From NCBI GenBank assembly GCA_948567375.1, contig OX419761.1, positions 9,338,243 to 9,402,242 on the forward strand: a DNA stretch of 64,000 nucleotides, read 5' to 3'. The stretch comes from Lunularia cruciata. Taxonomy: Eukaryota; Streptophyta; Marchantiopsida; Lunulariales; Lunulariaceae. The translations under genes and the position numbers were made by a program. Each line of letters starts with the position of its first letter. Within the stretch, counting starts at the first letter, position 1. Positions 11,563 to 54,531 of the stretch are shown here, piece after piece. The notes below the pieces were generated by a model. The model saw nothing but the letters and a program-made list of their open reading frames with translations. It ran no database searches and was not told where the DNA came from.

Positions 11563-11683
11563 AAACAATTTTGAGATAAGAAGAGGCAGATATGAAGAGG
11601 TGCATTGTTATTTTGGATCTGTAGGTTGGTAAAGTTGTTAGGAAATAGTTTAGGAAGTTAGATAACTGCTGAAGAGTTTCTCC

Positions 11684-20100: not shown

Positions 20101-20962
20101 TACCTCTCCGGCTTCCCTTCCCAACACTACCCTCTAATCCGCCTCTGTCCATCAAGCAGTATTCCCTAACTTCCCCTCATGCTTCAGCCCATCCTTGCAA
20201 TTGGTAGTTGCAATTTCTACCATGAAACCTAGAAAACTGAAATTCTAGTTCCAGGCCAGGAACGTGATACAAAGTCTTGTCAAGACTTCAATCTGCACTA
20301 TTACCTCCAATCTACAAATTGCAAGCCCTCTCACCGCACTCTGCTTGCTCACTTTTGGTGCCATCGTGTGCTTCCTCACTTTTCTCTTATGTAAGATCAT
20401 CCCCAAAATCCTAACCCACTCCTCTTCTTACGGATTTGTGATTTGCATTTCTTTGGGTCGACTCTGAATAGGCATTGGGTAGCAACTCGACATGGCTCCT
20501 TCTTCTTGTGCACCATGTAATTTTATAGTCCTGTGCCAATCAGTCACTCTTCAGTCACTACTCCTCTCAAATTTCTGATTCGGTGAAGTTGTTGCCTGTC
20601 ACTATCAAGAAGTTCTTGATCCCCAGGTCATTACTTTCTTTGCCCGTACTTTCTTGATTACGCCAACTCCAAAGAAGTTTGTTACAGGTTCTTTGGATTC
20701 ACTTGCGCTGCCCGATACAAAGTCTCTCTCTCTCCATCTTTGTGTTTGGCTTCTTCTTCACGTCTTGACCCAAAGTTGACTTTGGGTTTCATGCTGACAT
20801 GGCAAGTCGGAGTACTTTGCCTTATGACCCAAAGCCAAGTTACCTCCGGTTTCATCCCAAAGACTCTTTTCTTCACCTTCTTTGGTCATACAGGCACAAT
20901 CCAACTTCTCTATAAACTTCTTCTTCTCCATTTTGAAAAAAACAAAAAATGTGGGTACCACA
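17177..20962 (-). repeat. 3' LTR (E) of the large-LTR Ty3 element
   Basis: The LTR is 3786 bp. On the minus strand it runs from TGTGGTACCCACA (20962) to GGTTGTCACA (17177). The polypurine tract abuts its start, as required for a 3' LTR. U3 holds the 17961-20493 reading frame. The TATA box (TATTTAAGG) lies near 17845, with R/U5 below it. The 5' LTR (24165-26456) is closely similar where both exist, so this insertion is among the younger ones. Confidence 0.8.
17961..20493 (-). pseudogene. U3-encoded coiled-coil protein, copy E
   Basis: The best start is ATG 20493 (MSSC), in the place where other copies have MSSNF or MTSNF. An upstream ATG near 20547 is possible. The stop is at 17961-17963 after DDEVDIGLD. 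Order: an N-terminal tail; a globular domain with VLGREAGEVGGTTFYWKCDALEE (20030-20125) and PPHYFVPFAVHFYFGLNLL (19745-19815); an acidic linker (19300-19500); an unbroken 287-codon coil (18381-19244) rich in Glu, Lys and Leu heptads; and a C-terminal tail (18090-18347). There is no zinc knuckle, protease or transmembrane segment. Stops include TAG in the WNWN motif (20245) and one at the coil/tail boundary. Function is unknown; a structural or assembly role is only a guess. Confidence 0.65.
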
Positions 20963-20975
20963 TACCCCCTTCCTC
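20963..20975 (-). promoter_or_regulatory. Polypurine tract before the 3' LTR
   Basis: The minus strand reads GAGGAAGGGGGTA immediately before TGTGGTACC. A purine run next to the LTR's TG primes plus-strand DNA synthesis in LTR elements. Its position is the strongest proof that the 3.8-kb unit is an LTR. Confidence 0.85.
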
Positions 20976-21066
20976 AAATGTGAGCGTCCCTGTGAACATA
21001 GACTTTGAGTGTCTTAGAAACTTCCAAGTCTATGGTCCAATATCTCTGAACTCTCTACCCATTTAC

Positions 21067-24000
21067 TCAAAAGGCAAAAGGATTGCCCTCTAGGTCTACA
21101 AGTTGAGTGGACCCATTTTCATAAAGATGAAGAACTTGATAAGGCCCTATCCATCTCAAATGCAACTTGCTTGGAAAAAATATTTGGCAATTGTCGTATA
21201 ACAAAACCAAATCTCCTTTGTGCATAGCTACAGGCTTGATATGCTTATCATGCCTGACTTTCCTTTGTGCTTGTACTTCCTCCATGGTTTGCATTGCATC
21301 GTCTCTTTTCTCTTCTAACCACATTAGTTGATGGATCCAAAGATCTTGGCTTTCTTCCCCCGACATTCGTTCTTTGCAAAGAATCCGATATGTCGGTACT
21401 TCAAATTCAAATGGTAGTATGGGATGCAAGCCATATGTCAAGAAGTATGGAGTTTTTTTGGTTGTTCTCTTTTCTGTCATTAGATATGCCCACAACGCGG
21501 CTGGTAATTTTGTATCCCAGTCATAGGCATAATTGACAGTCACCTTATTCAAAATTTTGCAAAGTAACCCATTTGCCTTTTCCGTTAAGGCATTTGCTTT
21601 TGGGTTATAAGGAGTTGTCGTCCGATGTTTAATATAAAAGTACTTGGTTAATGCCTCCATTATAGAGTTCAAAACATGTGTCCCTTGGTCACTGACCAAT
21701 TCCAGAGGACACCCATATCGGGAGATGATGTTTCAAAAGAAAAATTCTACCATAGTTTTGGCATCATCTCTACGAGTTGCTTCAGCTTCAACCATCTTGG
21801 TAGCATAGTCAATGCAAACCAAAATGTATTGCTTCCTTGTGACTCGGGTCACTGGTTGAATGCGACCCACAAAATCAATTCTCCATTTCTCAAATGGGGC
21901 CAAGGGCAAAATTGGTCTCAAAGGCCATTGCAAAGTAGCCATCGGCTTCCCCATTCTTTGACAAGCATCACAGCTTTGGATATGAGCATGTGTGTCTTTG
22001 TACATCACAGGCCACCAATACCCTACCAAAAGAATCTTCTTTACATTATTCTTCAGAGCATAGTGTCCTCCCGATGCTTTGGAGTGTAAAGACTCAATCA
22101 CACCTCTTACTTCATATCACTCCAAGCATCGCCGAAGTACTTCATCTTTGCCCATCTTGAATAGAATGTGTGTTTGAGCTAGTACAGCCCCATTTTCCTG
22201 AGAAAGACTGCCCTCTGCTCCGGGTCTATCCCTTCAGGACAATGGAGAGTAAGCAAATAATGATATTTTGCTGCATACCTCGTACTTCGCATTGCTATTA
22301 ATTGATATAATTCTTCATCAGGGAATCGATTGTCAATTTCCACTCCTGGTCTTGAGTTTCTAACCTGGACAAGAAGTCCACATTTGAATGCAAAGCTCCT
22401 TTCCTTACTTGTATAGTATATGTGAATTCTTGTAACAACAAGATCCATCTTGCAATTCGCCCGGACAAATCTGCCTTCTTGACCAAATGTTGCAATGCGT
22501 AATGATCAACATAGAAGACAAACTCATATCCCAGCAGATAGTGGCGAAATTTCTTGTAAGCATACACCATTCTGAGTGCTTCTCTTTCAGTCATCAAATA
22601 GTTCTTTTCAGAAACTAAAAGTTGTCGGCTGGCATAATACACCGGGTAGTCCTTCTTCTTCTTGTCCTTCTGACTTAAGACAATGCCGATGGCCATGGAT
22701 AAAGTGTCCACATATACATGAAAAGGGACATCCCAATTCGGGGCACTCATAACTGGTGCTTCAACCAGTTTCTTCTTCAACACCTGGAAAGCTTCTTCTT
22801 GATTTGCTTCCCACGGATAGTCTTCAGATTTCTTCAGAAGCTTTGTAAGGGGTGTAGCAAGCACCGCATAGTTGGACACAAAGCTTGTGTAGTATCCAAC
22901 ATGTCCCAAGAAGGCTCTCAGCTCCCGGATGTTCTTCGGGGATTCCAAAGCTGCGATTACTTTAACCTTCTCGACATTGACTTCAATACCTTGGCTTGAT
23001 ACCCGATGCCCTAGAAGAATTCCCTCCTTCATTGCAAAGAAGCATTTCTCTAGGTGTAATGACAAGCCAGCAAAACAACACCTTTCAAAAGTTTGGCAAA
23101 GGTAATCCAAATAAACATCTCTTTGCCCAAATACACAAAAATCATCAATGAATACTTCCACAAATTTGCACAAGAAATCTTTGAAGATTGAATTCATCAT
23201 CCGCTGGAAAGTAGCGGGAGCATTACACAACCCAAAGGGCATTTGATTGTAAGCAAAAGTCCCCCAATCAGTCGTGAATGTAGTTTTATCCTTGTCCTCT
23301 TCTTGGATGGATACTTGATTGTACACTGAAAATCCATCAAGAAAGCTACCAGCTACTTGGTCTAGAATTGTATTGGTAAAAGGCAAGGGATGATGATCAT
23401 TCCTTGTGACTGCGTTCAACTTACGGAAGTCTTGGCACACTCAGATCTTCTCTGTTTTCTTCTTTGGGATAATGACAATGGGGGAGACCCATTCACTGCT
23501 TAAGACAGGGATGATGTTTTTGGCCCCTAAGTATTGGTCGATTTCATCTTTTACCAAAAGTGAGTACTTCGGGTTCAGACAGTATTATCGCTGCCGAACC
23601 GGAATTGCACCTTCAACCAGATCAATCCGGTGTTCTCCAAATTCTTGTGGATCACCCAACATTTGATCAATAGACCAGGAAAATACATCCTAGAATTCTA
23701 TAAACAGGGCTGTGTATCCTGCCAACTCCTCCAAAGTGATTGTCTTCGAAATTTTTAAAATTTTCCCTTCAGTCAAAACAACATGTTGACAGTCATTGGG
23801 GTTGATGAATCCTTCAACATGGCTTACTCAGCTTAACTCAAGGCGAGCTGCCATCAAACCCCCTTCCTCCAAGTCAGGTTCACCCGGGGCGAGGTCATAT
23901 GGATCTTCATCTTTGACGTCCACCTCGTAACATTCCAAGTAATTGACTTGGACTTTGTCTTTGGATTCGTCTAAGGACAAAGATGACGAGTCTTCGTATT

Positions 24001-24150
24001 TGGCCTCATCTTCTGACAAACAAGTTTCCCCAAGATGGGGAACTTTCGTCCAACTCACAGTCACCAGCTTCTGGTCTTCGGACGAAATGTCCATGAACCT
24101 TAATTTCTGCTGATGCCAATCCACCACAACTTGGGCACTATACAACCAAG
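21067..24150 (-). pseudogene. Ty3/gypsy pol: protease tail, RT, RNase H, integrase
   Basis: Minus-strand order is as follows. Protease end RPWLYSAQVVVDW (24130). RT (22298-23440) with QMPFGLCNAPATFQRMMN and VFIDDFCVFG as catalytic motif. RNase H with DTLSMAIGIVLSQK, TEREAL and FYVDH. A frameshift near 22350 leads into a linker. The integrase zinc finger has the CDAC cysteines (21960-22100). Core acidic residues lie in WRIDFVGRI, SDQGTH and TEKANGL, ending at 21067. RT lacks the usual first catalytic Asp region (GFSVYNQVSI). An in-frame TGA follows EFFF near 21733. The Met at 23440 is internal; RT homology continues upstream of it past a stop. RT is otherwise well preserved for this window. 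No chromodomain is seen. Confidence 0.8.
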
Positions 24151-24164
24151 GCCTTATCCAAGCC

Positions 24165-25990
24165 AAGCCTGATCTTTCTCCGCTGCCCTCTTCTTAAGGC
24201 TCTCCAACTCTTGCTCCATCACCGCAACAGTTGCCTTGGAGTGTATTAATTTGACACGCATCGCTGCGAGTTCTCCCTTCAATCCCGCAATCATCGTAGT
24301 CATCTCCTTCACTTCCTCACAATTCTTGACTAGCTCTTCCCTTGTCACCTCAAAGTGCTTACTCCAAAGAACCTCCTCAACCCAAAGTTCTTCGACCTCC
24401 ATCTCCACTCTTGTCAGCTTACTTTGTAACAATGAAGTTTCGGCACTCCATGCTTTTACCACCGCTAATTCATTGGGTACGTTGAGCTTGGCACTTATCA
24501 TCTCCAGTTTCCTCTGCTGCAACATCACCAACAACGGACATACTACTCTGGAAAAATAGTCCACTCCTTTGCTGCTTGCATCCTCGGCTTGGACTTTGGG
24601 TTCCGACTCTGTTATACTCAATACCTTGCTCTGAAGTCGAGATCTTCGCACCTTCAAAGTTTCCTCCTCGGGACTTTCTCCCTCCTTCTGAGTAAGGTAA
24701 CTGGGCCCCACTGCCAATACACTCAAGACATTATCACGCTTGGCAGCTTGAGGTTGTGCTTAGACTTCTTCTCCTTTCTTCTTACTACACCTTTCTAGCA
24801 TGGAAACCTTGGGACTTGGCTTTCCGACATCTTCCATCGGCTGTATCACTTGCTGAACTTCCACCTCGCCTTTGCTGCCGCTACTCAATTCTTTGCTTCA
24901 TAGCATAAAATCCTCTTCTTTGCCTGACACTCCTCCCTTCAATCTGGTTTCTCCTTCCGATTCTTCTTCTTCCTCCCGCACGACTTCCTTCGACTTCACC
25001 ATCACCGCCATCGGGTTAAGCCTTGGAACTTTCTGGGGTTGTACAATCACAACACGACTCTCAAGCTTGGTCCTCCTTCTCCCTTGCCCTTGGAAGGTCA
25101 ATTGCTATGATCTTTTCTCTCCCACTCTCTTTGTAGTACCTATCCTCCTCTTGCACTCTCTCCATATAATATCGCTCATCTGCATTGGCTTCCTTGCACA
25201 AATCTGGATGAAAGTGCAACCTCATTCGACTTTGCTCTTCCAAAGTTAGTAAGCTCAACCCAAAATAAAAGTGCACTGCAAACGGCACAAAATAGTGTGG
25301 TGGCATATCCATTCTCCACCCTGAAATCATCTGCCCCACTCTCTGATGCAAGCACTTCACCCAATCTACTGCCTCTCTTGCAAACATTTGGTGAAAGAAC
25401 ACCGCCTATTGCATAGTAACATAGGTGGTTTGCTCTGGCTTGAACATGGCCATCATTGCGCTTACAATTCCTCTCTGCTCAAGATCTCTATAGTTATCCA
25501 CCTTATACCCATTCTTCGTGCGGGGTCAATTAAACGACTTCTTAACTTGGCAGTTTCTTCTAAAGCATCACACTTCCGATAGAAGGTGGTACCTCCTACC
25601 TCTCCGGCTTCCCTTCCCAACACTACCCTCTAATCCGCCTTCGTCCATTGAGCGGGATTCCCTCTCTTCCCCTCATGCTTTGGCCCATCATTGCAATTGC
25701 TTTGCTGTAATTTCTACCATGAAACCTAGAAAAATGAAATTCCAGTTCCAGGCCAAGAACGTGATACAAAGTCTCGTCAAGACTTTGATCCACACTATTA
25801 CCTCTAATTGATGAATTGCAAGCCCTCTCACCGCACTCTGCTTGCTCACTTTTGGTGCCATTGTGTGCTTCCTCACTTTTCTCTTGTGGAAGATCATCCC
25901 CAAAATCCTAACCCACTCCTCTTCTTGCGGATTTGCGATCTGCATTACTTCAGGTTGACTCTGAATAGGCACCAGGTAGCAACTCGACAT
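24165..25990 (-). pseudogene. U3-encoded coiled-coil protein, copy F (C-terminus deleted)
   Basis: It starts at ATG 25990 (MSSCYLVPI) or the upstream ATG at 26044. It keeps an intact WNWN motif (25740), unlike E. The first part is open for 118 codons (25688-26044) and the coil for 190 codons (24154-24726). The globular middle carries GNPAQW, VLGREAGEVGGTTFY and MPPHYFVPFAVHFYFGLSLL, with small frameshifts. The deletion at 24165 removes the last third of the protein. E and F together give a near-complete view of the protein family. Confidence 0.6.
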
Positions 25991-26456
25991 GGCTCCTTCT
26001 TCTTGCGCACCTTGTAATTTTATAGTCTTGCGCCAATCAGTCACTCTTCAGTCACTACTCCTCTCAAATTTCTGATTCGGTGAAGTTGTTATCTGTCACT
26101 ATCAAGAAGTTCTTGATGTGAGGTCATTACTTTCTTTGCCTGTACTTTCTTGATTACGCTGACTTTGAAGAAGTTTGTTACAAGTTCTTTGGATTTGCTT
26201 GCGCCACCCAATACGAAGTCTCTCTCTCTCGTCATCTTTGTCTTTGGCTTCTTCTTCACATCTTGACCCAAAGTTGACTTTGGGTTTCATGCTGACAAGG
26301 CAAGTCTGAGTACTTTGCCTTATGACCCGAAGCCACGTTACCTTGGGTTTCATCCCAAAGACTCTTTTCTTTGCCTTCTTTGGTCATACAGGCGCAATCC
26401 AACTTCTCTGAACACTTCTTCTCCATTTTGAAAAAATAAAAAATGTGGGTACCACA
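24165..26456 (-). repeat. 5' LTR (F), 3' part deleted
   Basis: This matches 18684-20962 of the 3' LTR almost base for base, then stops inside the coil-coding region and joins protease sequence. The minus strand starts TGTGGTACCCACATTTTTTATTTTTTCAAAATGG-like. Because the LTR 3' end, primer site and gag are missing, the element cannot be reverse transcribed on its own. Confidence 0.75.
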
Positions 26457-37613: not shown

Positions 37614-38689
37614 TCCCTTGTGACAACCCGGCAAATATCACTTTTGCAATAATCAGGTAAGTAAAGTTCATTCCCATAGAGATACTGGTCAGAAATATCC
37701 AAATACAAAGTCAAATGTCACGATGTAATTCTTTTTGATTGCATCTTTAATCTCTCAGGTAGAAATCACACCTAGAAGAGAGTAACAAGCATTGATTTGC
37801 AGTCTCATCACAAAGTAATACTCCTTAATCACAACTCCATCAAATCTTTCCAAACAATCTTGATTTTGATGATTCAGGCTCTCCTAAAAACACCTTCACC
37901 ACAAAACAACTTTGCCTTAGAATTGTGTTGTACTCCTCTACTAAAGGCACAACTTCCTTGATCAAAATTGCTTCACATCAACTTTGCACAGCACTCACAA
38001 ATGCATAATACTACCAACACTACAATTCCTCTCGGATCTGTCAAGGCATTGCTTCAATTGCACTTCACTTAGTATCAAACACACATAGTAAAGATCAAGG
38101 TTGCGGAATCCAACAGCCAACAAGCACACTGACTTGCACTTTGAATTTCTCCACACACTCACAAGCACAATCACAACGTTGATACTCAGAATCAAGCTCA
38201 AGCAACGAGCACTACTTCACAGCATTTTGCTTTATCTATTCTCAAAAATAATGAGCACTGAACAACATATGATTGAGAATGCCACTCTTAAATAGTGAAG
38301 CAAACGATAGTTCTAACAAAAATACCATTCTACAACAACTCTTCTAACCTATAAATCTAAATTGACAATGCAACTCTTCATATTTGCTTCTTCAAATCTC
38401 AAAACTGTTACTAATCCAATCCAATGTCTACTTTGTCCTCGGCTTTCAAACCAATCGTGAAGTAACTTCACTCACTACTACTCTATCCTTGGGTTTCACA
38501 ACTCCTAATTCCTCTACCAATTCTAACAGTTCTCTTTCCTTATCTGAAATTCCACTAGTGGGTAATCTATCTAACTCCTTATCTCCCGACCCACTCTTCC
38601 CCAATGTTTCCAATGGTAACTCTGAAGACATCTGCATTCCTACGTTATCTACTTTAGGTTTTGCTTTGACATCCTTCCAAATTTTATCT

Positions 38690-38846
38690 ATCTTTAATTT
38701 TACTAAGTCTAATCTAATTGTGATATTGTCTTCTACCTCCAATATCTTTCTATCTATATGAGTTCTTAGACTATCTCTAATTTTACTACGTCTAATCTAA
38801 TTGTGATATTGTCTTCTACCTCCAATATCTTTCTATCTACACGAAA
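38690..38846 (-). repeat. Tandem duplication of about 82 bp within copy I
   Basis: The block TCTAATCTAATTGTGATATT to CAATATCTTTCTATCTA occurs twice in a row. No other copy of the family has it doubled. It duplicates part of the C-terminal tail codons. Confidence 0.75.
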
Positions 38847-40173
38847 TCTTAGACTAATGAGTAAGGCATTCAAGTCTTTGTCCTTCACATTTCTCCTCCT
38901 TGTCTCCTGCACCAACAACTTCAACTTGTGCAGTCTCGTTTCTTCAATGTGCATGTTGTCCTCTGTACTTAGCATCTCATTCATCTTGATCACAATCTCC
39001 TTCAATAGCTCCAATCTCATTTCCTCTCCCATTCTTGATCTACAAGCCAATCTTCTCTATACATTGCCAATTCTGCTTCAAACTCAGCTTTCATAACTTC
39101 CTTCTCCTTCTCTTTCTGCACAATCTTTTCCTCCTGATTGCGAAGTAACTCTCTCAACCTTTCTTCCTCTCTATATCTCACTGTCAACTCTCGTTGCCAC
39201 AATTGCTACTTCTCCTCTACACTTTCCATCACCCTATTGAGCTCTTGATCTTTCTCTGCTACGCTTGTCATAGCATGGATAATTTTTCATCTCAAATTAG
39301 CAAACTGTTGCTTCAAGATTTCATACTCAGCTACCTATCTTTCCCTTGCTATGACATTCTGCTCTATTAGTTCCTCCCTATTCCTTGCTTCTCTCCTCAA
39401 GTTCTCAACCACTTGATTCTGTACTAGTGCATCTAGTCGTAGTACTTCCCTTTCCTCCTCACCTTGGATTATACTCTTCTTTAATTCCGAGTTCTCTTCT
39501 TCTAATCTTGCTAACACCTGCAACACAGCCTTCACCTCCGGACACTTTGACTGCATCTCCTTCTTCCTGTGCTCTAACTTTACTAACAATGGGCACACAA
39601 CCTCCCACAAGTACTCTACTCCTTCACTCGGAGTTCCCTCGACTTGTGGACTGATCTCCTTCTTCACCTCTTCCTCACTTGACACTCACCTTTTAAGCTA
39701 CAGTCGCCTTATAGGAATGGATTCTTTGCTCCCCAAACTTCCATCCTCCTCTTTTCTTACCTTACTCGGCCCCACTACCCACTTTGCTTCCGTCTAGAAT
39801 GAACTCCTCTTTGAATGGTAACTCTCTTCTTCTCTTGCTCTAGAACTTTGTCTTCTAGTTTTGAGTTACTTTTCTCCTCCATCTCTATCTTGGCTTCCTC
39901 TTCCTTGGGTACCGATGTCATCTCCCCTCCATCGTTGCTATCACAATTTGTGTCTCTACTCTACAGTGTGAACTCGGGTTCTTCCTCTCTTTTCGAGTCT
40001 TTGGACTTGCATTCGGCTTTGCCTTCCAATTCTTCTTCCGATGATGCAATAACCACCATTCCTTTCCTTAGGTTTACCCTTCTAGCCTTCCAAGGTCTTG
40101 CTTTCTCGACTTCTTCTTCTCCTTGTAGACTCCTCTTCTTTTCCTTTGGAGTACTTACTTCCAATTGCACACT

Positions 40174-43100
40174 TGTGGTACCCACAATTTTTTTTTCAAA
40201 ATGGAGAAGGAGAAGTGTATAGAGAAGTCGGATTGTGCCTGTATGGCCGGAGAAGGCGAAGAAAAGAAGGTTTGAAATGAAACCCAAGGTAACGTGGCTT
40301 TGGGTCATAAGGCAAAGTACTCAGACTTGCCCTATCATCATACAACCCAAAGTAAGAAGTCTTCATATCAAGGGGTGCCCAACCTGAGGCAAAGATAGTG
40401 TAACAACTTTTCTTTGGGGCAAGAAATTCAAGAAGAGACCGTTTAAAAAAACCGGCGGTCATACACATGAAGTACACTTGACAGTGACAGGCGCATGCAA
40501 GAGGTGTGATTTCTGAGTAGAAACTCAAATTGAAGAGAGACAAAGAAGGTGCAACTCTATAAAAATTGGGCTAATAACAAAGCAATGTCGAGCAATTTTC
40601 CTTCACCGTTGAGGAGTCATCCTATAGGAGATCGTGGGAAAGGAAGTAGAGTTGAAGATGCGCAAGTGTGTAGAGGAGAATTTGAGAGAGCTAACCCGAG
40701 AGACAATGAGGAAGAAAGAAAGCTGGGAGGAGGAAAGAAGAACTCCAAATTTGCAGTGAGATATCATGCAATTTGGAGGTTAGATGTGATCGCAAGGATC
40801 AAAGTCTTGAGCCGACTTCGGATCACATTTTTAACATGGAATTGGAATGTTAGTTTTCCAGGATTCATGAACGAGATAATCAAGAGTAAATGTCTTGATG
40901 GCCCCAAGGAAGAGGGGAAGAGAGGAAATCCGGCTTGCTAGACGGAGTCGGATTGGAGATTAGTACTTGGAAGAGAGGCAGGCGCGGAGCAGGGTGCCAC
41001 GTTCTTGGAGAAGGGAGAGGTAGCCAAAGAAACCCAAGAAGTGAGGGATGCATTCTCTTTGAAGCGGACAAAGAATGGGTGCAAAGTAGAGAGTTACAAA
41101 GATCCGGTCAAGAGAGGGATCGTGAGTGCTCTCATGGCAATCATGAAGCCGGAGAGAATGACTTATGTGATGAAACACCAAGAGGTGTTCTTCCATTAGA
41201 TGTTTGCAGGAGAGCCAATCAACTATGCAAGGTGTTTTCATGGGTGAACGAGGCAGATGGTGTAATTTGCGGTATAAGTTGCCTCCACATTACATTGTGC
41301 CGTTTGCAGCTTATTTCTACCTCGAGTTGAATCTGCTCAATGCGGCGGAGCGCAACAAAATGGTGTTGCATTTTCATCCCGACTTAAGAAAGGAGGTCGA
41401 CACGGAGGAGCAGCAGTACATTCTTCAGATCCAAAGCAGTGATGAGTACTACACGCCGACGGGAAGAGTGCACAAGTGGAAGTAAGTACTCCAAAGTCAA
41501 AGAAGTGGGGTCGACAATGAGAAGGCAAAGACGTAGAGAAAGAAGACTCGGAAGGTGAAGCCGAGTGCAAGTCCAAAGACTCGGAACACAAGGAAGAACC
41601 CAAGCTTACACTACAGAGTGGGGATACAAGTAGTGACAGCAATGAAGGCGGGAAGATGACGTTGGTGCCCATAGCAGAAGAAGAAGTTTGGATGGAGCTC
41701 GAGGAAGAGAGTAATGCGAAGTTGGAAGACGAAGTGCCCAAGCAAGAGGAGAAGAAGATTACCATTCAGAGAGGAGTTTGGTCCAGGCACAAGGCAAAGT
41801 GTGAAGCGGGTCTAAGCAAGGCAAGGGAAGAGGAGAATGCCAGTTTGGGGAATGAAGCATCCATTTTGATACGACAATTGTAGAGAAGAAGGCAAGTATC
41901 AAGAGAAGAAGAGGTAAAGAAGGAGATCACTCCGCAAGTTGAAGTAGTCGTGAGTGATGGAGTGGAGTACCTGCAAGAAGTTGTGTGTCCTCTCTTGGTG
42001 AAATTAGAACACAAGAAGAGGGAGATGCAGTCAAAGTATTCGGAGGTGAAGACTGTATTGCAGGTATTAGCACGACTAGAAGAAGAGAACTTGGAGTTGA
42101 AGAAGAGTATAATCCGAGGTGAGGAGGAAAGGGAAGTACTGCGAGTGGATGCAGTACTGCAGAGTCAAGTGGTAGAAAACTTGAAGAGAGAAGCAAGGTA
42201 TCGAGAGGAACTTGTGAAGCAAAGTGATATAGCAAAGGAAAGACAAATTGCCAAATAGGAGATCTTGAAGCAGTAGTTTGCTGATTCAAGACTAGAAATT
42301 ATCCATGCTATGGCAAGGGTAGCAGAGAAGGAACAAGAGCTCAATAAGGTAATGGAGAGTGTAGAAGAGAAGAAGCAACTGTGGCAACGAGAGTTGGCAG
42401 TGAGATATAGGGAAGAAGAGAGATTGCGAGAGTTACTTTGTAATCAAAAAGAGAAGGTTGTACAGAAGGGGAAGGAGAAGGAAACTGTGAAAGCCAAGTT
42501 CAAAGCAGAATTGGCAATGTACCAAGAGGATTAGCTTGCAGATCGGGAGTGCAAGAGGAAGATGAGATTGGAGCTCTTGAAGGAGATCATAATCAGGATG
42601 AATGTGATGTTGAGTACAAAGGCTAGTGTGCGTATAGAGGAGACGAGGCTGCGTGAGTTGAAGTTGTTGGTGCAGGAGACAAGGAGGAGACATGCAAAGG
42701 ATACCAATTTGAACACATTGTTGATTAGCCTCAGAACTCGTGTAGATAGGAAGATATTGGAGGTAGAAGACAATATCACAATCAGATTAGACTTAGTAAA
42801 GTTGGAGATAGATAAACTTCGGGAAGATGTTTGAGCAAAACCCGAAGTATATGAAGTAGGCTTACAGATATCTTTGGAGTTACCATTGGACACATTAGAG
42901 AAGAGTGGGTCGAGAGATAAGGAGTTAGAAAGATTGCCCACTAGTGAAATGTCAGATCAGGAAAGAGAACTATTAGATTTGGTAGAAGATGTAGGAGTTA
43001 TGAATCCCGAGGATAGAATATTAGGAAGTAAAGTTACTTTGAGATTGGGTTTGAAAGCCAAAAAAGAAGTAGACATCGGATCGGATTAATAACCAATTTG

Positions 43101-43885
43101 AGATTTGAATAGACAGATATGAAGAGGCACATTGTCATTTTGGATCTGTAGGTTTGTAGAGTTGTTAGGAAGAGGTACATTAGGAAGATAAATGTCAATT
43201 GTTTCACTACTTAAGAGTGGCATTCGCAGTCTTATATTGTTTAGTGCTCATAATTTCTGAGAATAGATAAAGCAAAGTGCTGTGAAACAGTGCTCATCAC
43301 TTAAGCTTGATTCTAAGCATCAGCTTTGCAATTGTGTTTGTGAGTGTGTGGAGAAATTCAAAGTGCAAGTTAGTGTGCTTGTTTGATGTTGGATTCCGCA
43401 GCCTTGATCTCTATTTTGTGTGTTTGATCCTGAGTGAAGTGCAATCGAAGCAATGCCTTTATAGATCTAAGAGGAATTGTAGTGTTGGTAGTATTCTACA
43501 TTTGTGAGTGCAGTGCAAAGTTGATGTGAAACAATTTCAATCAAAGAAGTTGTGCCTTCAGTGGAGGGGTGGAACACAATTTTGAGGCAAAGTTGTTTTG
43601 TAGTGAAGTGCCATTTTTGGGAGAGCCTGAATCATCACAATCAAGATTGTTTGGAAAGAGTTGATGGAGTTGTGATTAAGGAGTGCTAATTTGTGACAAG
43701 AGTGAGAATCAGTGCTTGTTACTCTCTTCCGGGTGTGGTTTCTACCTGAGAGATTAAAGACGCAACCAAGAAGAACTACATGTTACTATTTGACTTTGTA
43801 TTTGACCAATTCTGACTCGTATCTCTGAGGGAACAAACTTTACTTACCCAATTACCACAAAAGTGATATTTTCCAGGTTGTCACA
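40174..43885 (+). mobile_element. Solo LTR J of the large-LTR family, nested in I/K
   Basis: This is a complete LTR of 3712 bp with intact ends TGTGGTACCCACA and GGTTGTCACA. The target duplication ACACT is perfect (40169-40173 and 43886-43890). It is the innermost and so the latest layer of this nest (host 1, chromovirus, I/K, J). Its reading frame is the best preserved among the solo LTRs. Confidence 0.9.
40585..43089 (+). pseudogene. U3-encoded coiled-coil protein, copy J (best-preserved full-length frame)
   Basis: ATG 40585 (MSSNFPSPL) to TAA 43087-43089 is 835 codons. Two small deletions (about 2 bp near 41270 and 1 bp near 41466) cancel, so the frame is open to the end apart from about ten stops. 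Globular part: TFLTWNWNVSFPGF, GKRGNPA, DWRLVLGREA, RGIVSALMAIMKPER, QEVFFH-MFAGEPINYARCF, PPHYIVPFAAYFYLELNLL, FHPDLRKEV. An acidic linker follows (41500-41880), then coil (41950-42650) and tail (LVKLEIDKLRED; LEKSGSRDKELERLP; KKEVDIGSD). Stops are mostly TAG for CAG or TGG and TGA for CGA. The function is unknown. Confidence 0.7.
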
Positions 43886-45215
43886 ACACTCTTCCCTGTC
43901 TGTGTGTAGTACTCATCACTGCTCCTGATCTGAAGAATGTATTGCTTCTCCTCCGCTTTGACATGTCTTCTTAAGTCGGGATGGAAATGTGACACCATCC
44001 TATTGTGCTCCGCCACATTGAGCAAGTTCAACCCCAGATAGAAATGGGCTGCAAACGGCACAATGTAATGTGGAGGCGACTTATCCCGCAAATTCAACAC
44101 CACTATCTCGTCCTCCCATGAAGACACTTCGCCTAGTTAATTGGCTCTCCTGCAAACATCTTATGAAAAAACACCGCTTGGTGCTTCATCACATAAGTTG
44201 TTCTCCCCTGCTTCAAGATTGCCATTAGAGCACTCACAATCCCTCTCTTCACGGGATCCTTATAGCTCTCTACTTTGTAACCATTCTTTGTGCGCTTCAA
44301 AGAGAAGGCATCTCTCACTTCCTGGGTTTCTTCAGCTACTTCCCCCTTCCCCAAGAATGTGGCACCATGCTCCACGCTTACTTCTCTCCCGAGTACTAAC
44401 CTCCAATCCGACTCTGTCCAGCGAGCCGGATTACCTCTCTTCCCTTCTTCCTTAGGGCCATCAAGACACTTACTCTCAATGATCTCAATCATGAACCCTG
44501 GAAAGCTAACATTCTAGTTCCATGCCAAGAATGTGATCCAAAGCCTACTCAAGACTTCAATTCTTGTGATCACATCTAACCTCCGAATTGCATGATTTCT
44601 CACTACAAATTCATAATTCTTCTTCCCTCCTCCCATCTTTCTCTCTTCCACTTTAAGTTGGAGACTATTCTTCCTACTTATTCCCAGATTAACTCTCTTG
44701 ATTTCTTCTCAACACACCAGCGTGTCTTTGACTCTACTTCCCTTCCCACGATCTCCTGCATGAGGACTTCTTAATGGTGATGGAAAATTGCTTGTCATTG
44801 CTTTTTCTTTAGCCCAATTTTTATAGATTCGCGCCTTCTTTGTCTTTCTTCAATATGAGTTTCTACCAAGAAATCACACCTCTTGCATGCTCTTGTCACT
44901 GTCAATTGTCCTTCACGCGTATGACCACTATTTTTAAATGGTCCCTTCTTGAATGTCTCGCCCGAAAGGAAAGTTGTTACACTATCCTTGCCTCGGGTTG
45001 AGCACCCCCAATACAAAGACTCCTTACTTCGGGTTGTATGCTGACAGGGCAATTTTGAGTACCTTGCCTTATGACCCAATGACACGTTACCTTGGGGTTC
45101 ATCCAGAGGACACTTTTCTTTGCCTTCTTTGGCCATACAAGCGCAATTTGACTTCTCTATACACTTCTTCTTCCAAATTTTGAAGAAAAACAAAAAATGT
45201 GGGTACCATATCCCT

Positions 45216-46703: not shown

Positions 46704-49700
46704 TGTGGCAACCCAACAAGTATCACTTTTCTGGTAATTAAGCAAATAAAGTTCATTCTCACAAAGATACAAATCAAAAATATTCAAATACAAAGACAAA
46801 TGGTAACAAGTAGTTCTTCTTGGTTGCATCTTTAATCTCTCAGGTTAAAGCACACCCAGAAGAGAGTAACAAGCATTGATCACAGTCTTGTCACAAATTA
46901 ACACTCACTGATCATAACTCTATCAAATTTTGTCCAAACAAATCTTGATTGTGATGATTCAGATCCTTCCAAAGATGGCTACTTCACTGCAAAGCACCTT
47001 CACCTCAGAATTGTGTTCCACCCCTCCACTGAAGGCACAACTTCCTCAATTGAAATTTCTTTGCATCAACCATGTGTTGCACTCACAAATGTAGAATACT
47101 ACCAACACTACAATTCCTCTCAAATCTATCAAGGCATTGCTCAGATTGCACTTCACTCAAGATCAAACACATAGAATGAAGACCAAGGTTGCGGAATCCA
47201 ACATCCACCAAGCACACTAATTTGCACTTTGAAATTCTCTCATCACTCAAAAACACATACACATAGAATTGTTACTCTGAATTAAGCTCAAGCGATGAGC
47301 ACTAAAATCAGCACTTTGCTTTATCTATCTTCAATAATTATGAATATTGAACAACATTTGACTAAAAATACCTCCTTTAAATAGTAGAGCAATTGATAAT
47401 TGCTAACAACTATACCGTTTTACAACAATTCTACCAACCTACAAATCCGAAATAACAATGCACTTCTTCATATTTGCCTCTTCATATCTCAATTTGTTTC
47501 TACTCCAATCCAATGTGTGCCTCTTCTTTGGCCTCCAACCCCGATGATCCTCCAATCACTTCTCCTTCTTTGGGTTTATCTGATTCTACTAATTCCTTTG
47601 CTATCTCTAACACTTCTTCACTCTAAACTACAATTGCACTCATGGGTAATCTATCTAACTCTTTATCTTTTGACCCACTCTTCTCTAATGTCTTAGGTGA
47701 CAACTCCAAAGACCCATGCACTCCTACTTCTACAACTTTGGACTTCTTCTCCTCCTTTACACTACTCCTAAGTCTCTCTTACTTTGAGTTCACTAAATCT
47801 TATATGAGAATTACATTGTCTCCTACTTCAATTATCTTCCTATCTAATTGCTCTTTGAGACATATTAATAGAGTATTCATTTCTACGTCTTTCTCTCTTC
47901 TCTTCTGAGATTCCTGCACAAGAAATTTCAATTTGTGCAATCTCGCTTCCTCCAATCTTCCTTTAGATTCTATGCTTAGCATTGCACACAATCTTCCAAC
48001 AACTTCTCCTATTGACTTTAATGCATATCCCAAGATTGTTCTACCTTTGATTCCTCTTTGTACATCTTCAACTTGTCTTTGTACTTAGTAGCAAGCATCT
48101 TTTTTTCCTCCACATATTGAGCACTTTGCATCTCAACACTTCTGACCAAGCCTTGCAATATTTCCTTCTCTTGGTGTGGATCGCCAACTCCCTCTGCCAT
48201 GCTTGATCTTTCCGGCCGCACTCTTCTTCAAGCTCTCTAACTCATGCTCCATCACAGCCGCCATTGCCTTTACATGAATACCTTCAATGCAAAATTCACT
48301 AACCTCCTCTTTCATCTTTTCCAACAACACCATCTACTCTTTCAACTCTTTGGCTTGATTGTGCATCTCTCTTCCCCGCTTCTCAAAACTCTCTTTCAAG
48401 TTCTCTAAACTCTTCTTCTTCAAGACTGCATCCAACCAAAGTTCCTCAGGTTCTTCTCTTTGGGTTACACTCTCTTTCAATCCCTTCACTTTGTCCAGCA
48501 TATACTTCACCACCTGCAACTCATTCTTCACCTTCATACGATCTTGCAAGATTACCTTCTTCTGCGTATTGAGTAGCTCCAACTATGGAGTCATAATTTG
48601 CATTAAGTATTTTTCTCCCTCAAAGCCTTCTTTGTCTTTGGCTTCATCTTTGTACTTTGCTTCTTCCGCCAAGCCTTCTCCTAAAGTCTCAATCTTTGTA
48701 CCTTTAGTGATATTGCCTCCAAGCTTTCTTCTTCCTTACAGATTGAGCTCAGACCTACAAGTTCAACCATTATTCACTTCTTGGCTCTGCATCCTTTTTG
48801 GTCTTCCTTCTTTGGCTCTTCATCTATCTCCTCCATGGCTAATTCTAAGCAAGGGTTATTTCCTCCTTCCATACAATCATTAACACATGGAATGCCTCAT
48901 TTCCTTCCGCCTCAATTGCTTGCAGAACTTCATCTTCACTATCACTCTCACTTTTGGATTCCTCACTCTATAGTGTGATCTTGGCTTCTTTTGAGTCTCC
49001 TCCTCTAGACTCTGTTTCTCCTTCAAACTCTATTTCTGAAGTCTCCTCCTTCACCGCATGCTTACATAAGTCTTTGGGTCTTTCATTGTGGCTAGGGAAA
49101 TGCTACCTCTTTGGGCTTAGTCCGCTTCTTCATCTTTGGTCTTCTTCCTTCCACCATCTCCCTCTGCCCTTTTCTGCTAAAGTGGTGATTGTTGGCTCAC
49201 AATTGTAGCATATATTGCTGCTCTTCTTCATCTACTTCTTGTCATAGATCAAGATGGAAATGTGACACCATGCGCTACCTCTCCTCAATTTTCAGCAAAT
49301 TTAATCCAAAGTAGAAGTGTGTTGCAAACGGTGCAAAGTAATGTAGAGGCAAATTGATTCTCCAATTGACAATCATCTGGCTCGTTTGTTGGTGGAAGCA
49401 CTTTTCCAATTCACCTTCACTCCTGCAAACATCTTGTGTGAAAAGACTGTCTACTGCATGTTCACGTATGTCGCTCTTTTGGGTTTGAACATGGCCATTA
49501 TTGCTCCCACAATGCTCTGCTTGATTGAATCCCGATAGGACTCCACTTTGTAACCATTGTTAGTACACATAGCAAAGAACAAGTTTTTGATTTCCGTGGT
49601 CTCCTCTGCAGCATCACACTTCCAATAGAAGGTGGCCCTAGTTGCCTCTCTTGCTTCCTTCCCCAATACTAACCTCCAATCCGACTCAATCCATTGAGCC

Positions 49701-50485
49701 GGATTTCCTCTCTTCCCCACGACTTTGGAGCCTTCCTCATAATTACTAGCACCTATTTCTACCATGACACTTGGGAAACTGAAATTCTAGTTCCATGCTA
49801 GGAATGTAATCCAAAGTCTATTCAAGACCTCAATCCTAGCTATGAAATGTAATCTCCAAATTGCAAAAATCCTCACAACGAGTACATTCTTAGTCTTCTT
49901 TGCCATGATTTGCTCTTTGGTTCTTTAGCATTGGAAGAATATCCCTTCTTTTGGATGCAACACTCTAAACCCTTTTAGACTTTGGAAAATTTCACTCTCA
50001 ATTGGCTTCTTGATGCGCATTACCAAAGAATGATTACTCAGAGGAATAGGATATCTACTTGACATATTTGATTTCCCCTTGCATAATTGTAATTTTATAG
50101 TACCCCGAAGTGTAGTCATTCTTCAGTCAATTTCAAAATCAACTCCCATTTATTCTGCATGTTGGTTTCTTGTCATTGTCAAAGTATTCTTCCCCTGCCT
50201 ATGCTATTTCTTGAAGTGTATTTTCTTGCCTGGCCTGACACTTAGAAAGGTTGTTACACCATCTTTGTATCGGCCTTTGCTTCCTGGTCCAAAGACACAC
50301 TTCTTCAGATTTGTCTCTTCATAGCCCCATCCAAGTACTTTTGGTTCTTGACCCCGAGTCAACCTCTTTGGGTTTCCTCCAAAGACACATAAGTCTCTTC
50401 TTTACTTTGTAATTTGGCTCCCTCAATACACTTCTTCTTCAATATTTTAACAAAACAGAACAAAACAAAAAATGTGGGTACAACA
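46704..50485 (-). mobile_element. Solo LTR L of the large-LTR family, inserted in host 1 RNase H
   Basis: 3782 bp, with ends TGTGGCAACCC and GGGTACAACA. The flanks are TATGA (46699-46703) and CACGA (50486-50490), which differ by two transitions. Removing L restores host 1 RNase H as EYDKLSRKLA in frame. It has a U3 reading frame, TATA near 47378 and R/U5. There is no internal domain. Confidence 0.8.
47500..50065 (-). pseudogene. U3-encoded coiled-coil protein, copy L (broken)
   Basis: The start is ATG 50065 (MSSRYPIPL) and the stop 47500-47502. The globular part (49451-49765) is open: GKRGNPAQWIESDWRLVLGKEA, TRATFYWKCDAAEETTEIKN, GYKVESYRD, KQSIVGAIMAMFKPKRATYV. WNWN has a TAG (49787). A weak linker follows, then coil (47800-48582) with KSAAGKIKHGRG, and the tail. 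It forms a subfamily with M. Confidence 0.6.
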
Positions 50486-50833: not shown

Positions 50834-53800
50834 TGTGACAACCCGGCAAATATCACAATCGTGTAAGTAAAGTTTGTTCTCACAGAGATACGATTCAAAA
50901 TTGATCAAATACAAAGTCAAATAGTAATATATAGTTCTTATTGATGTCCTCTTTAATCTCTCAGGTAGAAACTACACCCAAAAGACAATAACAAGCTCAC
51001 AATCTTGACAACTTGTCACCAATTCACACTCCTTAATCACAACATAGCAAATTCTATCCAAACAATTCTTGATTGTGATAATTCAGATTCTCCCTAAGAT
51101 GGCACTTCACTACAAAAACAACTTTGTCTCAGAATTATGTTCCACCTCTCCACTGAAGGCACAACTTCCTTGACCAAAATTGCTTCACATCAACTTTGTG
51201 TTGCACTCACAAATGTAGAATACTACCAACACTACAATTCCTCTCGGATCTGTCAAGGCATTGCTCTGATTGCACTTCACTTAGGATCACACACACAGAA
51301 TGAAGATCAAGGCTACGGAATCCAACATCCAATAAACACATTGACTTGCACTTCAAATTTCTCCCAACACTCACAAACATAGACACAGAGTTGATCCTCA
51401 AAATTAAGCTCAAGCGACGAGCACTGAAAACAACACTTGACTTTATCTATCTTCAAAAATATGAATACTGAACAACATAACACTGCAAATGCCACTCTTA
51501 AATAGTGAAGAAAATGACAGTTCTAATAGAAATACAGTTCTACAACAACTCTTCTAACCTGCAGATCTGAATTGACAATGCAACCCTTCATATCTGCCTC
51601 TTCAAATCTCAAATCTGTTTCTACCCCAATCCAATGTCTACCTCGTCATCGGCTTCCAAAACCCAATGATCTTCCTATCACCTCTCCTTCTTTGGGTATA
51701 TCTGATTCTACCAAATCCTTCACCATTTCTACTATCTCTTCACTAGAATATACAATTGAGGTCATGGTTAATCCATCTACTTCTTTATCTTTTGACCCAC
51801 TCTTCTCTAATGTGTCAAACAACAAGTCCAAAGACACCTGAATTCCTACTTCTGCAACATCAGACTTCCTTTCCTTTGTCACACTACTCCTGATTCTCTC
51901 TAACTCTGACTTGACTAAATCTAATCTGAGATTGACATTGTTTCCTACTTCTAACATCTTCCACTCTACTTGCTCCCTTAATCACATCACTAAAGTGTTC
52001 ATATCCACATCTTTGGCTTTCCTCTTCCGAGTTTCCTGCACAAGCAACTTTAACTCATGTAGACATGCTTCTTCCAATCTCCCTTTAGCCTTTGTACTCA
52101 AGGTTGCTCGCAATTTTCATGCAACTTCTCCTACTGATTTTGACTCATTACGTTGAGATCGCTCTGCCTTCAACTCTTCATGGTACATCTTCAACTCATC
52201 TTTGTACTCATCAGCAAGTATCTTCTTCTCCTCTGCATACTGTGAACTTTGCAACTCAGCACTTTGTACCAGCTTGCTCAATCTTTCTTCTTCTTGATGC
52301 TTGACTGCCAACTCTCTCTGCCATGCTTGATCCTTCCCAGCTGCACTCTTCCTCAAGCTTTCCAACTCCTGCTCCATTATTGCAGCCATTTCCTTCACAT
52401 GAATACTTTCGATGCGCACATCACTGACCTCCTCTTTCATCTTGGTCAGCAACATTGCCTGCTCTTTCAATTCCTTGGCTTGCTTTTGCAGTTCCTGACC
52501 TCTTGACTCAAAACTCTCTTGCAACTTCTCAAAATTCTTCTTCTTCAAGATTGCATCCACTCAAAGTTCTTCAACTTCCTTATCTCTTTGGACTACATGC
52601 TCTTGCAAACCCTTCACTTCAACCAGCAAATACTTCACCACCTACAACTCATTTGTCACCTTCATACAATCTTGCGGAATTACCTTCTGGTGCTCCTTCA
52701 ACAGTTCCAACAATGGAGTGACAACCTTTGATAGATACGGTATTCCGCCAAAGTTCTCTTTGTCTTTGGCCCCATCTTTGTACTTTGCCTCTTCCATCGG
52801 CTCCTTCTGCCAAAGTCGTGATCTTTGTATCTTCAAAGATGCTACTTCTGAGCTTCCTTCTTCCTTACCTACTAAACTCGGTCCCGCAGGGTACTCCTTC
52901 CGTCTTTCAGCCCCCTTCTCTTCCACAACTAGGGCTACACAATCGTCTTTCCTAGTACACTGTCAATCATTGCATGACAAGCTTCACCCACTCCAACCGA
53001 TTGCTGAACCTCGTGTTCCCCCTCACTCTTACTTCCGGATTCCTCACTTTGTAAAGTGAGTTTGTCTTCTTTTGAGTCCTCTCCTTGAGACTCTGTCTCC
53101 TCTTCGGACTCGGTTTTTGATGGTGCTTCTTTCACCATCTTCTTACTTTGCAGAACCAATCTTTGGGTCTTCCTTTGTGTTGGAGGTGACTTTGCATCTT
53201 TGGGTTACTGCACTTCTTCCATCTTCCATTGTCCCCTCCTCAAGAAGTGGTCATCACTGGCTCGCAGGTGTGCCATATATTGTTGCTCTTTGTCATCCGC
53301 TTCCCATCTCAAATCATGATGGAAATGTGACACCATGCGACGCCTCTCCTTTGTTGTCAGCAAGTTCAACCCAAAGTAGAAGTGTGCTGCAAACGGTGCA
53401 AACTAATGTGGAGGCAAACCTGTCCTCCAATTGACCACCATCTGCCTTGTTTGTTGGTGAAAACACTTTGCCCAGTTCACCTTCTCTCCTGCAAACATCT
53501 GATGGAAAAAGACCACATGTTGCATGTTCACTTAAGTTGTTCATTTTGGTTTGAACATGGCCATTATTGTCCCCACGATACTTTGTTTAATAAGGTCCCA
53601 ATAGGGCTCCACCTTGTAACCATTTGTGGTACACGGAGCAAAGAACAAATTTTTTATCTTCGTCGTCTCCTCTGCAGCATCACACTTCCAATAGAAGGTG
53701 ATCTCCGTCGGTTCTCCTGCTTCCTTCCCCAACACTAACCTCCAATCCAACTCAGTCCATCAAGCCGGATTTCCTCTCTTCCCCTCAACTTCGGGGCCTT

Positions 53801-54531
53801 CCTCATAATTACTGGCAGCTATCTCTGCCATGACTCCTGGGAAACTGAAATTCTAGTTCCATGCTAAGAAAGTAATATGAAGTCTATTCAAGACTTCAAT
53901 TCTTGCTACGACGTCCAACCTACAAATTGCAAAAATTTGCACTGCTAGAGTATTCGTGACCTTCTTTGCCATGATCTCCTCTCTCATTCTTTGGCACTGG
54001 AAAACTATTCCCTCTCTTGGATGAGACACTCTAACCCCTTCTGGATTTTGGAAAATTTCACTCTCAATTGGCTTCCTAACATGCATTCCTGACACACAAT
54101 CAAAGGGATTGGAAATCTACTTGACATACTCAACTTGTCCTTGCGTAATTGCAATTTTATATTTCCCCAAATTGTAGTCATTCTTCAGTCAATTTCAAAA
54201 TCGACTTCCACTTCTCTATGTGTTGCTGCCTTGTCACTATCAAGACATGCTTCTTCTACCTCCGCTGTTTCTTGAAGTGTACTTTCTTGCCACGTACCAA
54301 GGTTGTTAGATGGTCTTTGTATCGGCCTTCATTTCCCGATCCAAAGATGATGCTCTTCGGACTTCTTTCTTTGTACTCCTCTCTTGAGTACCTCCATCAT
54401 TGGATCCAAAGTTGACTTCTTCAGATTTTCTCCAAAGACACTCCCGTCCATTCCTTTTTTTGCAATTCAGCTTTCTTTGCTTACTTCTTCTCCCAAATGC
54501 TAATAAACAGAAAAGAAATGTGGGCACCACA
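50834..54531 (-). mobile_element. Solo LTR M of the large-LTR family, inserted in host 1
   Basis: 3698 bp, with ends TGTGACAACCCGG and GGGCACCACA. The target duplication GTATA is perfect (50829-50833 and 54532-54536). It carries the U3 reading frame, TATA near 51500 and R/U5. No pol sequence is present. Confidence 0.9.
51621..54127 (-). pseudogene. U3-encoded coiled-coil protein, copy M (broken)
   Basis: ATG 54127 (MSSRFPIPL) to the stop at 51621-51623, about 836 codons. The globular part (53541-53750) has DWRLVLGKEAGEPTEITFYWKCDAAEETTKIKN, with a conserved HVSMVSHFHHDL-like block near 53330. The linker (52935-53159) is Ser/Glu rich. The coil (52117-52560) is open for 147 codons, with VKEMAAIMEQELESLRKSAAGKDQAW. 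The tail (51646-51957) has LRLDLVKSELERIRSSV and LEKSGSKDKEVDGL. Stops include TAG in WNWN (53854) and TGA for Trp near 52562. Confidence 0.65.

What the first reader, a model, noticed from the sequence alone, without database searches (positions are those of the whole stretch)
40174..43885. An ~835-codon protein gene inside the U3 of plant Ty3 LTRs
Seen: J, B, D, E, G, I/K, L and M are 3.6-3.9-kb LTRs, and each carries one long sense frame that starts about 400 bp after the LTR start (MSS/MTS-NF) and ends about 120 bp before the LTR's TATA box (DIG-D/E stop). The same order of conserved blocks, acidic linker, coil and tail is found in every copy, although these copies are strongly diverged from each other at subfamily level. 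That suggests the frame was kept by selection while the family was active. Known: protein genes in U3 are documented in some retroviruses (for example Sag of mouse mammary tumour virus). I know of no described plant counterpart of this size. Inference: a new accessory protein of this retroelement family.
Basis: partly seen in the sequence, partly recalled or inferred. Interest (0 to 1): 0.9.

Follow-up and report, generated by a model that had tools for sequence, protein, structure and literature searches.

The report
Protein gene inside plant retrotransposon LTRs
In a plant genome, a jumping gene of the Ty3 type carries a large, apparently undescribed protein gene inside its terminal repeats, with what looks like its own start signal, and natural selection kept that protein's sequence while the family was spreading.

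Summary
Ten copies in the window carry one sense frame of about 835 codons inside long LTRs. It starts about 410 nt into L and ends 119-124 nt before a TATTTAA-type box in seven of nine copies (184 in D; E3 missed by the pattern). The units are LTRs: perfect 5-bp target duplications in five of seven insertions with both ends found, an LTR pair around RT and integrase, and a genomic element ordered LTR-gag-pol-PPT-LTR. Past selection was strong: dN/dS 0.19-0.31 between subfamilies, against 0.76-1.24 in shifted frames and 0.54 within one LTR pair. New here: TATAAA lies 27 or 34 nt before the ATG in 6 of 8 independent copies, so the LTR looks like a gene cassette. No relative was found in Pfam, PDB or 5.8 billion proteins, which hold plant retroelements. 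All 20 copies aligned are broken. Plant extra ORFs in the review read lie in the internal region, so this is a new variant. Function is inferred only.

The parts
40174..43885 (+). LTR copy L (solo LTR), 3,712 bp, inserted into LTR M
   Evidence: TG...CA ends, TSD ACACT on both sides
40558..40565 (+). TATA-1 of L (TATAAAAA), 27 nt upstream of the ORF start
   Evidence: conserved in position across copies
40585..43089 (+). U3 ORF of L, 835 codons plus stop; broken by 9 stops and 2 frameshifts
40750..41455 (+). Conserved N-terminal domain of the U3 ORF (about 236 residues; end approximate)
   Evidence: alignment A1, 39 invariant columns; pooled dN/dS 0.17
43208..43217 (+). TATA-2 of L (TACTTAAGAG; TATTTAA in the other window copies), 121 nt after the stop codon, probable promoter of the genomic RNA
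37619..45210 (-). LTR copy M (solo LTR, TSD AGGGA, starts TATGG), interrupted by L; ORF from 44798 down to 38411
17177..26456 (-). Element E: 3' LTR 17177-20962, internal remnant 20963-24161, truncated 5' LTR 24162-26456; flanks CCAGT/CCAAT
   Evidence: 92% identical LTR pair, PPT next to 20962, RT and integrase
17961..20493 (-). U3 ORF in the 3' LTR of E (9 stops, 1 frameshift); TATA-1 at 20527
24163..25990 (-). U3 ORF remnant (columns 1-601) in the truncated 5' LTR of E
22298..23440 (-). Reverse transcriptase and RNase H of E; integrase follows at lower coordinates
   Evidence: Pfam PF00078, PF17917, PF17919; PF17921 and PF00665
27527..31157 (-). LTR copy D (solo LTR, TSD GGTGC); ORF from 30744 down to about 28389
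50834..54531 (-). LTR copy I (solo LTR, TSD TATAC); ORF from 54127 down to 51621; TATA-1 at 54161
46704..50485 (-). LTR copy G (flanks TCGTG/TCATA, 3 of 5 alike); ORF from 50065 down to 47500; TATA-1 at 50099
8587..12356 (+). LTR copy B (solo LTR, TSD GGCAC, end bases mutated); ORF 8996-11562
13608..16949 (+). LTR copy J from the ORF start to the LTR end (LTR start not found); ORF 13608-16154, 27 stops
4281..7111 (-). LTR copy A: ORF columns 73-835, LTR end lost, LTR start not found; followed by an internal-region remnant at 3187-3710 (75% to E's DNA just before RT)

Best explanation
The frame is a real accessory protein gene of a Ty3-type plant retrotransposon, lying in the U3 part of its unusually long LTR. 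Shown: it is in the LTRs; it sits in many diverged copies; its protein sequence was under purifying selection in the lineages that gave rise to the copies; the element has a separate gag and pol; a TATA box lies at a fixed short distance before its ATG in most copies, and a second box about 120 nt after its stop. Inferred: the upstream box (TATA-1) drives an mRNA for this protein from any LTR, ended at the poly(A) site in R, while the downstream box (TATA-2) drives the genomic RNA. Reverse transcription would copy the gene with U3 into both new LTRs, so a full element has two copies and a solo LTR keeps one. The protein has a conserved N-terminal domain, an acidic linker, a partly coiled-coil stretch and a tail, and no membrane segment consistent between copies, so it is probably a soluble, self-associating factor. 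My commitment on function, held at about 0.35: a trans-acting nuclear regulator of the element's transcription, silencing or integration, rather than an envelope or structural protein.
For: Frame in 10 of 10 window copies, in 8 of 8 genomic copies scored out of 10 fetched with both flanks, and in 2 of 3 further 3' LTRs downstream of a stop-free RT, the third matching only its first 438 nt. Stops 129/8,028 codons against 745 and 530 in shifted frames. dN/dS 0.19-0.31 in this frame only, rising to 0.25-0.50 within the L subfamily and 0.54 in an LTR pair, as expected if selection ended at insertion. TATAAA at 27 or 34 nt in 6 of 8 independent window copies, ATAAA in 8 of 8; TATAAA at 27 nt in 6 of 8 genomic copies. 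TATA-2 at the aligned place in nine window copies, eight TATTTAA and one TACTTAA. Separate gag with zinc knuckle.
Against: No transcript or protein data. TATA-1 is only 27 nt from the ATG in L, M and D, so transcripts could start at or past the ATG (typical plant spacing about 30 nt, recalled). TATA-2 reads TACTTAA in 6 of 8 genomic L-type copies. All 20 copies aligned carry at least 3 stops. Among the best-scored genome matches, 0 of 80 L-type and 1 of 78 E-type C-terminal pieces lack a stop, against 48 of 108 for RT (counted by eye), so constraint may have weakened lately. Deep pairs are saturated in dS. In the LTR pair the baseline is not 1 but 0.54-0.69 in all frames. A heptad peak shows only in the windows starting at columns 400 and 450.
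Confidence: 0.8

Rival explanations
1. TATA-1 is the promoter of the genomic RNA. The ORF would then lie in a very long R-U5 and be the first gene of the full-length RNA, not a U3 gene.
For: TATA-1 is a textbook TATAAA, and ATAAA is the longest invariant run in the upstream alignment. The frame starts just where such a transcript would start. In most genomic L-type copies TATA-2 is the weaker TACTTAA (6 of 8).
Against: A second box lies 119-124 nt after the ORF in seven of nine copies and leaves an R-U5 of about 650 bp, a usual size (recalled). A 3.3-kb strong-stop product would be unusual (recalled).
Confidence: 0.17
2. The U3 gene is expressed like MMTV sag or lentiviral nef: from a spliced subgenomic RNA that starts in the 5' LTR and ends in the 3' LTR; TATA-1 is incidental.
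For: This is how U3 genes of retroviruses are commonly expressed (recalled).
Against: No pyrimidine-rich acceptor is visible before the ATG (alignment, judged by eye). The position of TATA-1 is kept across subfamilies.
Confidence: 0.15
3. A host gene captured once by this lineage and carried along.
For: No counterpart in other retroelements was found by the searches made.
Against: No relative among 8,000 and 2,277 scored candidates of 5.8 billion proteins, a set that holds many plant retroelement proteins, and no Pfam or PDB match. Sister species of the host may be missing from that set, and the host genome itself was searched only for the best matches, which were capped.
Confidence: 0.08
4. 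No gene: a purine-rich LTR that happens to have a long open frame in one direction.
For: The strand is purine-rich and the antisense frames also have rather few stops (228-313 in 8,028 codons).
Against: dN/dS 0.19-0.31 only in this frame, also on translation-blind alignments; 39 invariant residues in the N-terminal domain among copies 50-81% identical to L.
Confidence: 0.01

Closest known systems
Extra or additional ORFs of plant Ty3 retrotransposons (Athila env-like ORF, Retand ORF4, Grande gene23, PvRetro13 ORF2); review PMC7264820, parts 1 and 2 of 3 read
   Same: Large additional protein gene beside gag-pol, kept in most copies, no clear database relatives. [quoted passage not shown] PvRetro13 ORF2 has an SMC domain.
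   Different: Those described there lie in the internal region, most often between pol and the 3' LTR, sense or antisense. Here the gene is sense and inside the LTR, so it is present twice per element and kept by solo LTRs.
sag of mouse mammary tumour virus and nef of lentiviruses (recalled)
   Same: Protein gene in (or reaching into) U3, copied into both LTRs.
   Different: Retroviruses of mammals; much smaller proteins; Sag is a membrane protein (all recalled). No direct sequence comparison was made; Pfam scans gave no such match.
Retrosat2 of rice (PMC3485330: outline, abstract and passages seen)
   Same: Plant LTR retrotransposon with LTRs over 3.2 kb and an extra ORF0 without assigned function.
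   Different: The passages seen describe ORF0 as an ORF found only in the grass family and list regulatory signals, no ORF, for the LTR. I did not read where ORF0 lies; the ORF here is inside the LTR.
BARE LTR with two TATA boxes (mentioned in a passage of PMC3485330)
   Same: Two TATA boxes in one plant LTR, both active according to that passage.
   Different: The passage does not speak of a protein gene between them.

Membership tests
Ty3-type LTR retrotransposon | RT, RNase H, integrase in that order, with gag upstream | tested here: met
   RT-RH then H2C2 and rve in E; Retrotrans_gag 7.7e-7 and zf-CCHC 3.6e-6 in genomic copy L021, RT and integrase after it
Ty3-type LTR retrotransposon | TG...CA ends and 5-bp target duplication | tested here: met
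   Duplication perfect in L, M, D, I, B; 4/5 in E; 3/5 in G; ends of J and A not both found. Terminal bases are mutated in M, D and B
Ty3-type LTR retrotransposon | Polypurine tract next to the 3' LTR | tested here: met
   Purine tract directly before the LTR in E, L027, L029, L030-L032
Ty3-type LTR retrotransposon | Primer binding site for a tRNA next to the 5' LTR | tested here: inconclusive
   Deleted in A and E; only L021 was looked at for the junction and no tRNA was assigned
Extra ORFs of plant Ty3 elements (eORF/aORF) | Additional ORF of at least 250 codons beside gag-pol | tested here: met
   835 codons; threshold from a passage of PMC6317226
Extra ORFs of plant Ty3 elements (eORF/aORF) | Located in the internal region | tested here: not met
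   Frame lies within LTRs in all copies examined
Extra ORFs of plant Ty3 elements (eORF/aORF) | Shared transposon-type domains such as PF04195 or PF20167 | tested here: not met
   Domain of ten copies and longer pieces (five stretches) against Pfam-A: no such match at E up to 10 and 0.1; HMMER's filters drop most weak matches; profile-profile comparison was not possible
Env-like protein | Transmembrane segment | tested here: inconclusive
   Hydropathy only, in four of ten copies: best 19-residue mean 1.28 (M), 1.33 (L), 1.53 (I), 1.68 (E3); E3 and I peak at the same spot (residue 61), L and M elsewhere; only E3 passes 1.6, a line recalled
Env-like protein | Position between pol and the 3' LTR | tested here: not met
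   The frame starts about 410 nt inside the LTR
MMTV sag-like U3 gene | Sense ORF in U3, present in both LTRs | tested here: met
   Both LTRs of E carry it; the U3 assignment rests on TATA-2
MMTV sag-like U3 gene | Sequence relation to Sag | tested here: inconclusive
   No match in Pfam-A scans; no direct comparison made

The most novel reading that the evidence does not exclude
The LTR itself is a complete gene cassette: own promoter, protein gene, terminator. Solo LTRs, usually taken as dead remains, then stay protein-coding copies that can supply a trans-acting factor to the family, and a genome can keep the function after losing the rest of the element.
Probability: 0.3. Interest if true: 0.85.

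Novelty: new variant of a known kind. Interest (0 to 1): 0.7.

Why it matters
LTRs of plant retrotransposons are generally read as control regions, and the review and survey seen here place extra ORFs between them. Here a large frame under strong past selection lies in the LTR, in a family with many copies (80 L-type matches scored out of 24,010 first-look candidates). If LTRs can hold selected genes, annotation may have missed a class of retroelement proteins, and the question whether solo LTRs can act in trans becomes testable by RNA 5' ends and ribosome profiling in one genome.

Tried and rejected
Chance frame: rejected by stop counts in six frames and the codon test (shifted and antisense frames, translation-blind alignments).

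The 3.7-kb unit as a DNA transposon or as a mobile unit of its own: considered because most copies stand alone; rejected because of the 5-bp duplications, the LTR pair around pol and the PPT-LTR junctions.

The frame as the element's gag: rejected, a separate gag with zinc knuckle lies in the internal region.

Conifer host: my first guess, from the P450 gene; for it I looked at passages of PMC2633040 and paper listings.

Led nowhere: protein searches with the frame, PDB profile search, Pfam (in 37 one of ten members gave Toxin_17 at E 0.17, taken as chance), scans of viral and prokaryote contigs, Rfam and tRNA scans of the window, a plasmid search with the P450 (10). Paper searches for an ORF in a plant LTR: none seen in titles and abstract starts, but most lists were capped (for instance 20 of 123 and 12 of 251 shown); one search found 2 papers, one using 'protein-coding LTR-RTs' in another sense (passage), the other seen in the listing only. 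I had a resemblance of the N-terminal domain to a Pfam plant-transposon domain in mind from memory; no call supports it.
Full report
What is there. Much of the 64-kb window is a nest of one family of long LTRs next to a plant cytochrome P450 gene. L (40174-43885, +) is a complete LTR of 3,712 bp that starts TGTGGTACCCACA and ends TTGTCACA, with ACACT on both sides; it sits inside M (37619-45210, minus), which has AGGGA on both sides. D, I and B also have perfect 5-bp duplications; E, an element with two LTRs, has 4 of 5 and G 3 of 5; the two ends of J and of A could not both be found. E's LTRs are 92% identical over 2.3 kb; a purine tract stands before its 3' LTR, and RT-RNase H and integrase lie between. 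So the units are LTRs, five of them solo with perfect duplications.

The frame. I aligned every copy codon by codon to the frame of L, allowing frameshifts. All ten copies carry it: 40.5-72.3% identical to L, 741-835 columns in nine and 583 in the truncated E5, 5-27 stops and 1-8 frameshifts each. E3 and E5 are the two LTRs of one element, so there are nine independent copies; A lacks the start. Stops in this frame are 129 in 8,028 codons; the other two sense frames have 745 and 530, the antisense frames 313, 228 and 308. Of 118 stops at aligned columns, 66 stand where the other copies mostly have Q, W or R, which fits C-to-T decay after insertion.

Selection. For pairs with dS up to about 1.1 the ratio is 0.21 (L-M, 95% bootstrap 0.17-0.26), 0.19 (L-D, 0.14-0.24), 0.19 (M-D, 0.15-0.25) and 0.31 (G-I, 0.25-0.38); the same stretch read one or two bases later gives 0.76-1.24 and antisense 0.78-0.95. 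Translation-blind MAFFT alignments give 0.21, 0.19 and 0.28 for L-M, L-D and G-I, so the result does not come from the codon aligner. Of 45 pairs in all, 40 are deeper (dS above 1.5, five not computable) and I do not lean on them. The fifth shallow pair, E3-E5, whose two LTRs were identical at insertion, gives 0.54 (0.39-0.78) with 0.62-0.69 in the other readings: that is the neutral baseline here, not 1. Pairs within the L subfamily lie between (0.25-0.50, median 0.36, 36 pairs). The order fits selection while active and decay after insertion. By sector, pooled over L-M, M-D and G-I, the N-terminal domain and the coil are most constrained (0.17, 0.18), the tail least (0.38).

Two TATA boxes. 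The binomial values printed there treat copies as independent, which they are not fully. ATAAA is the longest invariant run in that alignment. In 8 genomic copies TATAAA stands at 27 nt in six; one has lost its ATG and box (L009), one its box (L017). After the stop, a box stands at 119-124 nt in seven of the nine copies (L, M, G, I, B, J, A), at 184 in D, and was not matched by the pattern in E3, although the alignment shows it there; it is TATTTAA in eight copies and TACTTAA in L. In the 8 genomic L-type copies it stands at 121 nt, TACTTAA in six and TATTTAA in two. I take the second box as the genomic promoter and the first as the promoter of the gene; both are inferences.

The rest of the element. 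The genome search answered four times. The window lies in a 566-Mb genome of 74 contigs. Of ten L-type genomic copies that I fetched with both flanks, four are solo LTRs with perfect duplications, two have 4 of 5, two are interrupted by other LTR sequence before their end, and two belong to elements (a 5' LTR, L021, and a 3' LTR after a purine tract, L027); duplications were read by eye. L021 goes on into gag (7.7e-7) and a zinc knuckle, RT and integrase, a purine tract and a 3' LTR that is 91% identical over about its first 710 bp and then interrupted. So gag and pol are separate from the LTR gene. The eight copies scored (the ten less the two interrupted) all carry the frame, with 3-14 stops each. 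Of three 3' LTRs downstream of a stop-free RT, two carry the frame over 788 and 828 columns with 3 stops each and TATAAA at 27 nt; the third matches only the first 438 nt of L.

Against this reading. None of the 20 copies that I aligned is intact. Among the best-scored genome matches, 0 of 80 pieces of the L type (539 residues) and 1 of 78 of the E type (563 residues) lack a stop, while 48 of 108 RT matches (about 369 residues) do (RT counted by eye). LTR matches include solo LTRs and the pieces are longer, so this is not a fair match, but recent loss of constraint is possible. There is no RNA evidence. The distance from TATA-1 to the ATG is short.

Relatives. Neither the D frame (8,000 candidates scored) nor the domain alignment (2,277 candidates) has a relative in 5.8 billion proteins. 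The same collection gives 2,179 matches at 1e-20 or better to the RT of E among 4,977 candidates; among the 120 listed, the best is an unnamed 71% match, and named ones include liverworts (Calypogeia, Marchantia, 53-58%) and flowering plants, so plant retroelements are represented. PDB gave nothing and Pfam nothing of note (weak coiled-coil families; Toxin_17 at E 0.17 for one of ten members). Scans of viral and prokaryote contigs found none.

What it works like. The protein has a conserved domain of about 236 residues, an acidic linker, a charged stretch with little P or G and a heptad peak in the windows starting at columns 400 and 450 only, and a tail. Hydropathy in four copies gives one value above 1.6 (E3, 1.68; I has 1.53 at the same spot, L and M peak elsewhere), so a membrane helix is unlikely but not excluded. 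That points to a soluble, self-associating protein. The review of additional ORFs (PMC7264820, parts 1 and 2 of 3 read) describes Grande gene23 as nuclear with its own promoter and PvRetro13 ORF2 as having an SMC domain; both lie in the internal region. PMC6317226 (passages) classes extra ORFs of 250 codons or more by position in the 5' or 3' part of the element. No described plant ORF within an LTR was seen in the listings of my paper searches, most of which were capped. So: a new variant, an accessory gene lying in the LTR with its own probable promoter, rather than a wholly new kind.

Verdict. Observation confirmed, interpretation supported, function open.

Noticed in passing
59859-61756 (-): Plant cytochrome P450 gene in two pieces (340 and 183 aa), next to the LTR nest; the best solved relatives of the first piece are sugiol synthase and ferruginol synthase.
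   Followed up: partly
whole window and 10 fetched genomic copies: Solo LTRs dominate: five of seven window insertions with both ends found stand alone with perfect duplications, and six of ten genomic copies look solo.
   Followed up: partly
31769-32161 (+) and 46261-46698 (+): Remains of RT and RNase H of other Ty3-like DNA (26-35% identical to the RT of E).
   Followed up: partly
26521-27194: Two LTR-end fragments in opposite orientation side by side (minus 26521-27074, plus 27076-27194).
   Followed up: no
just after the ORF stop, e.g. 43090-43150: A stretch between the ORF stop and TATA-2 that looks, by eye, strongly conserved in nine copies; possible control element.
   Followed up: no
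L021:3793-3900: Junction of LTR and internal region without an obvious standard primer binding site; the priming tRNA is not known.
   Followed up: no
5896-6507 (+), 10295-10903 (-), 28988-29473 (+): Long ORFs antisense to the frame in copies A, B and D, probably a by-product of purine-rich coding.
   Followed up: no
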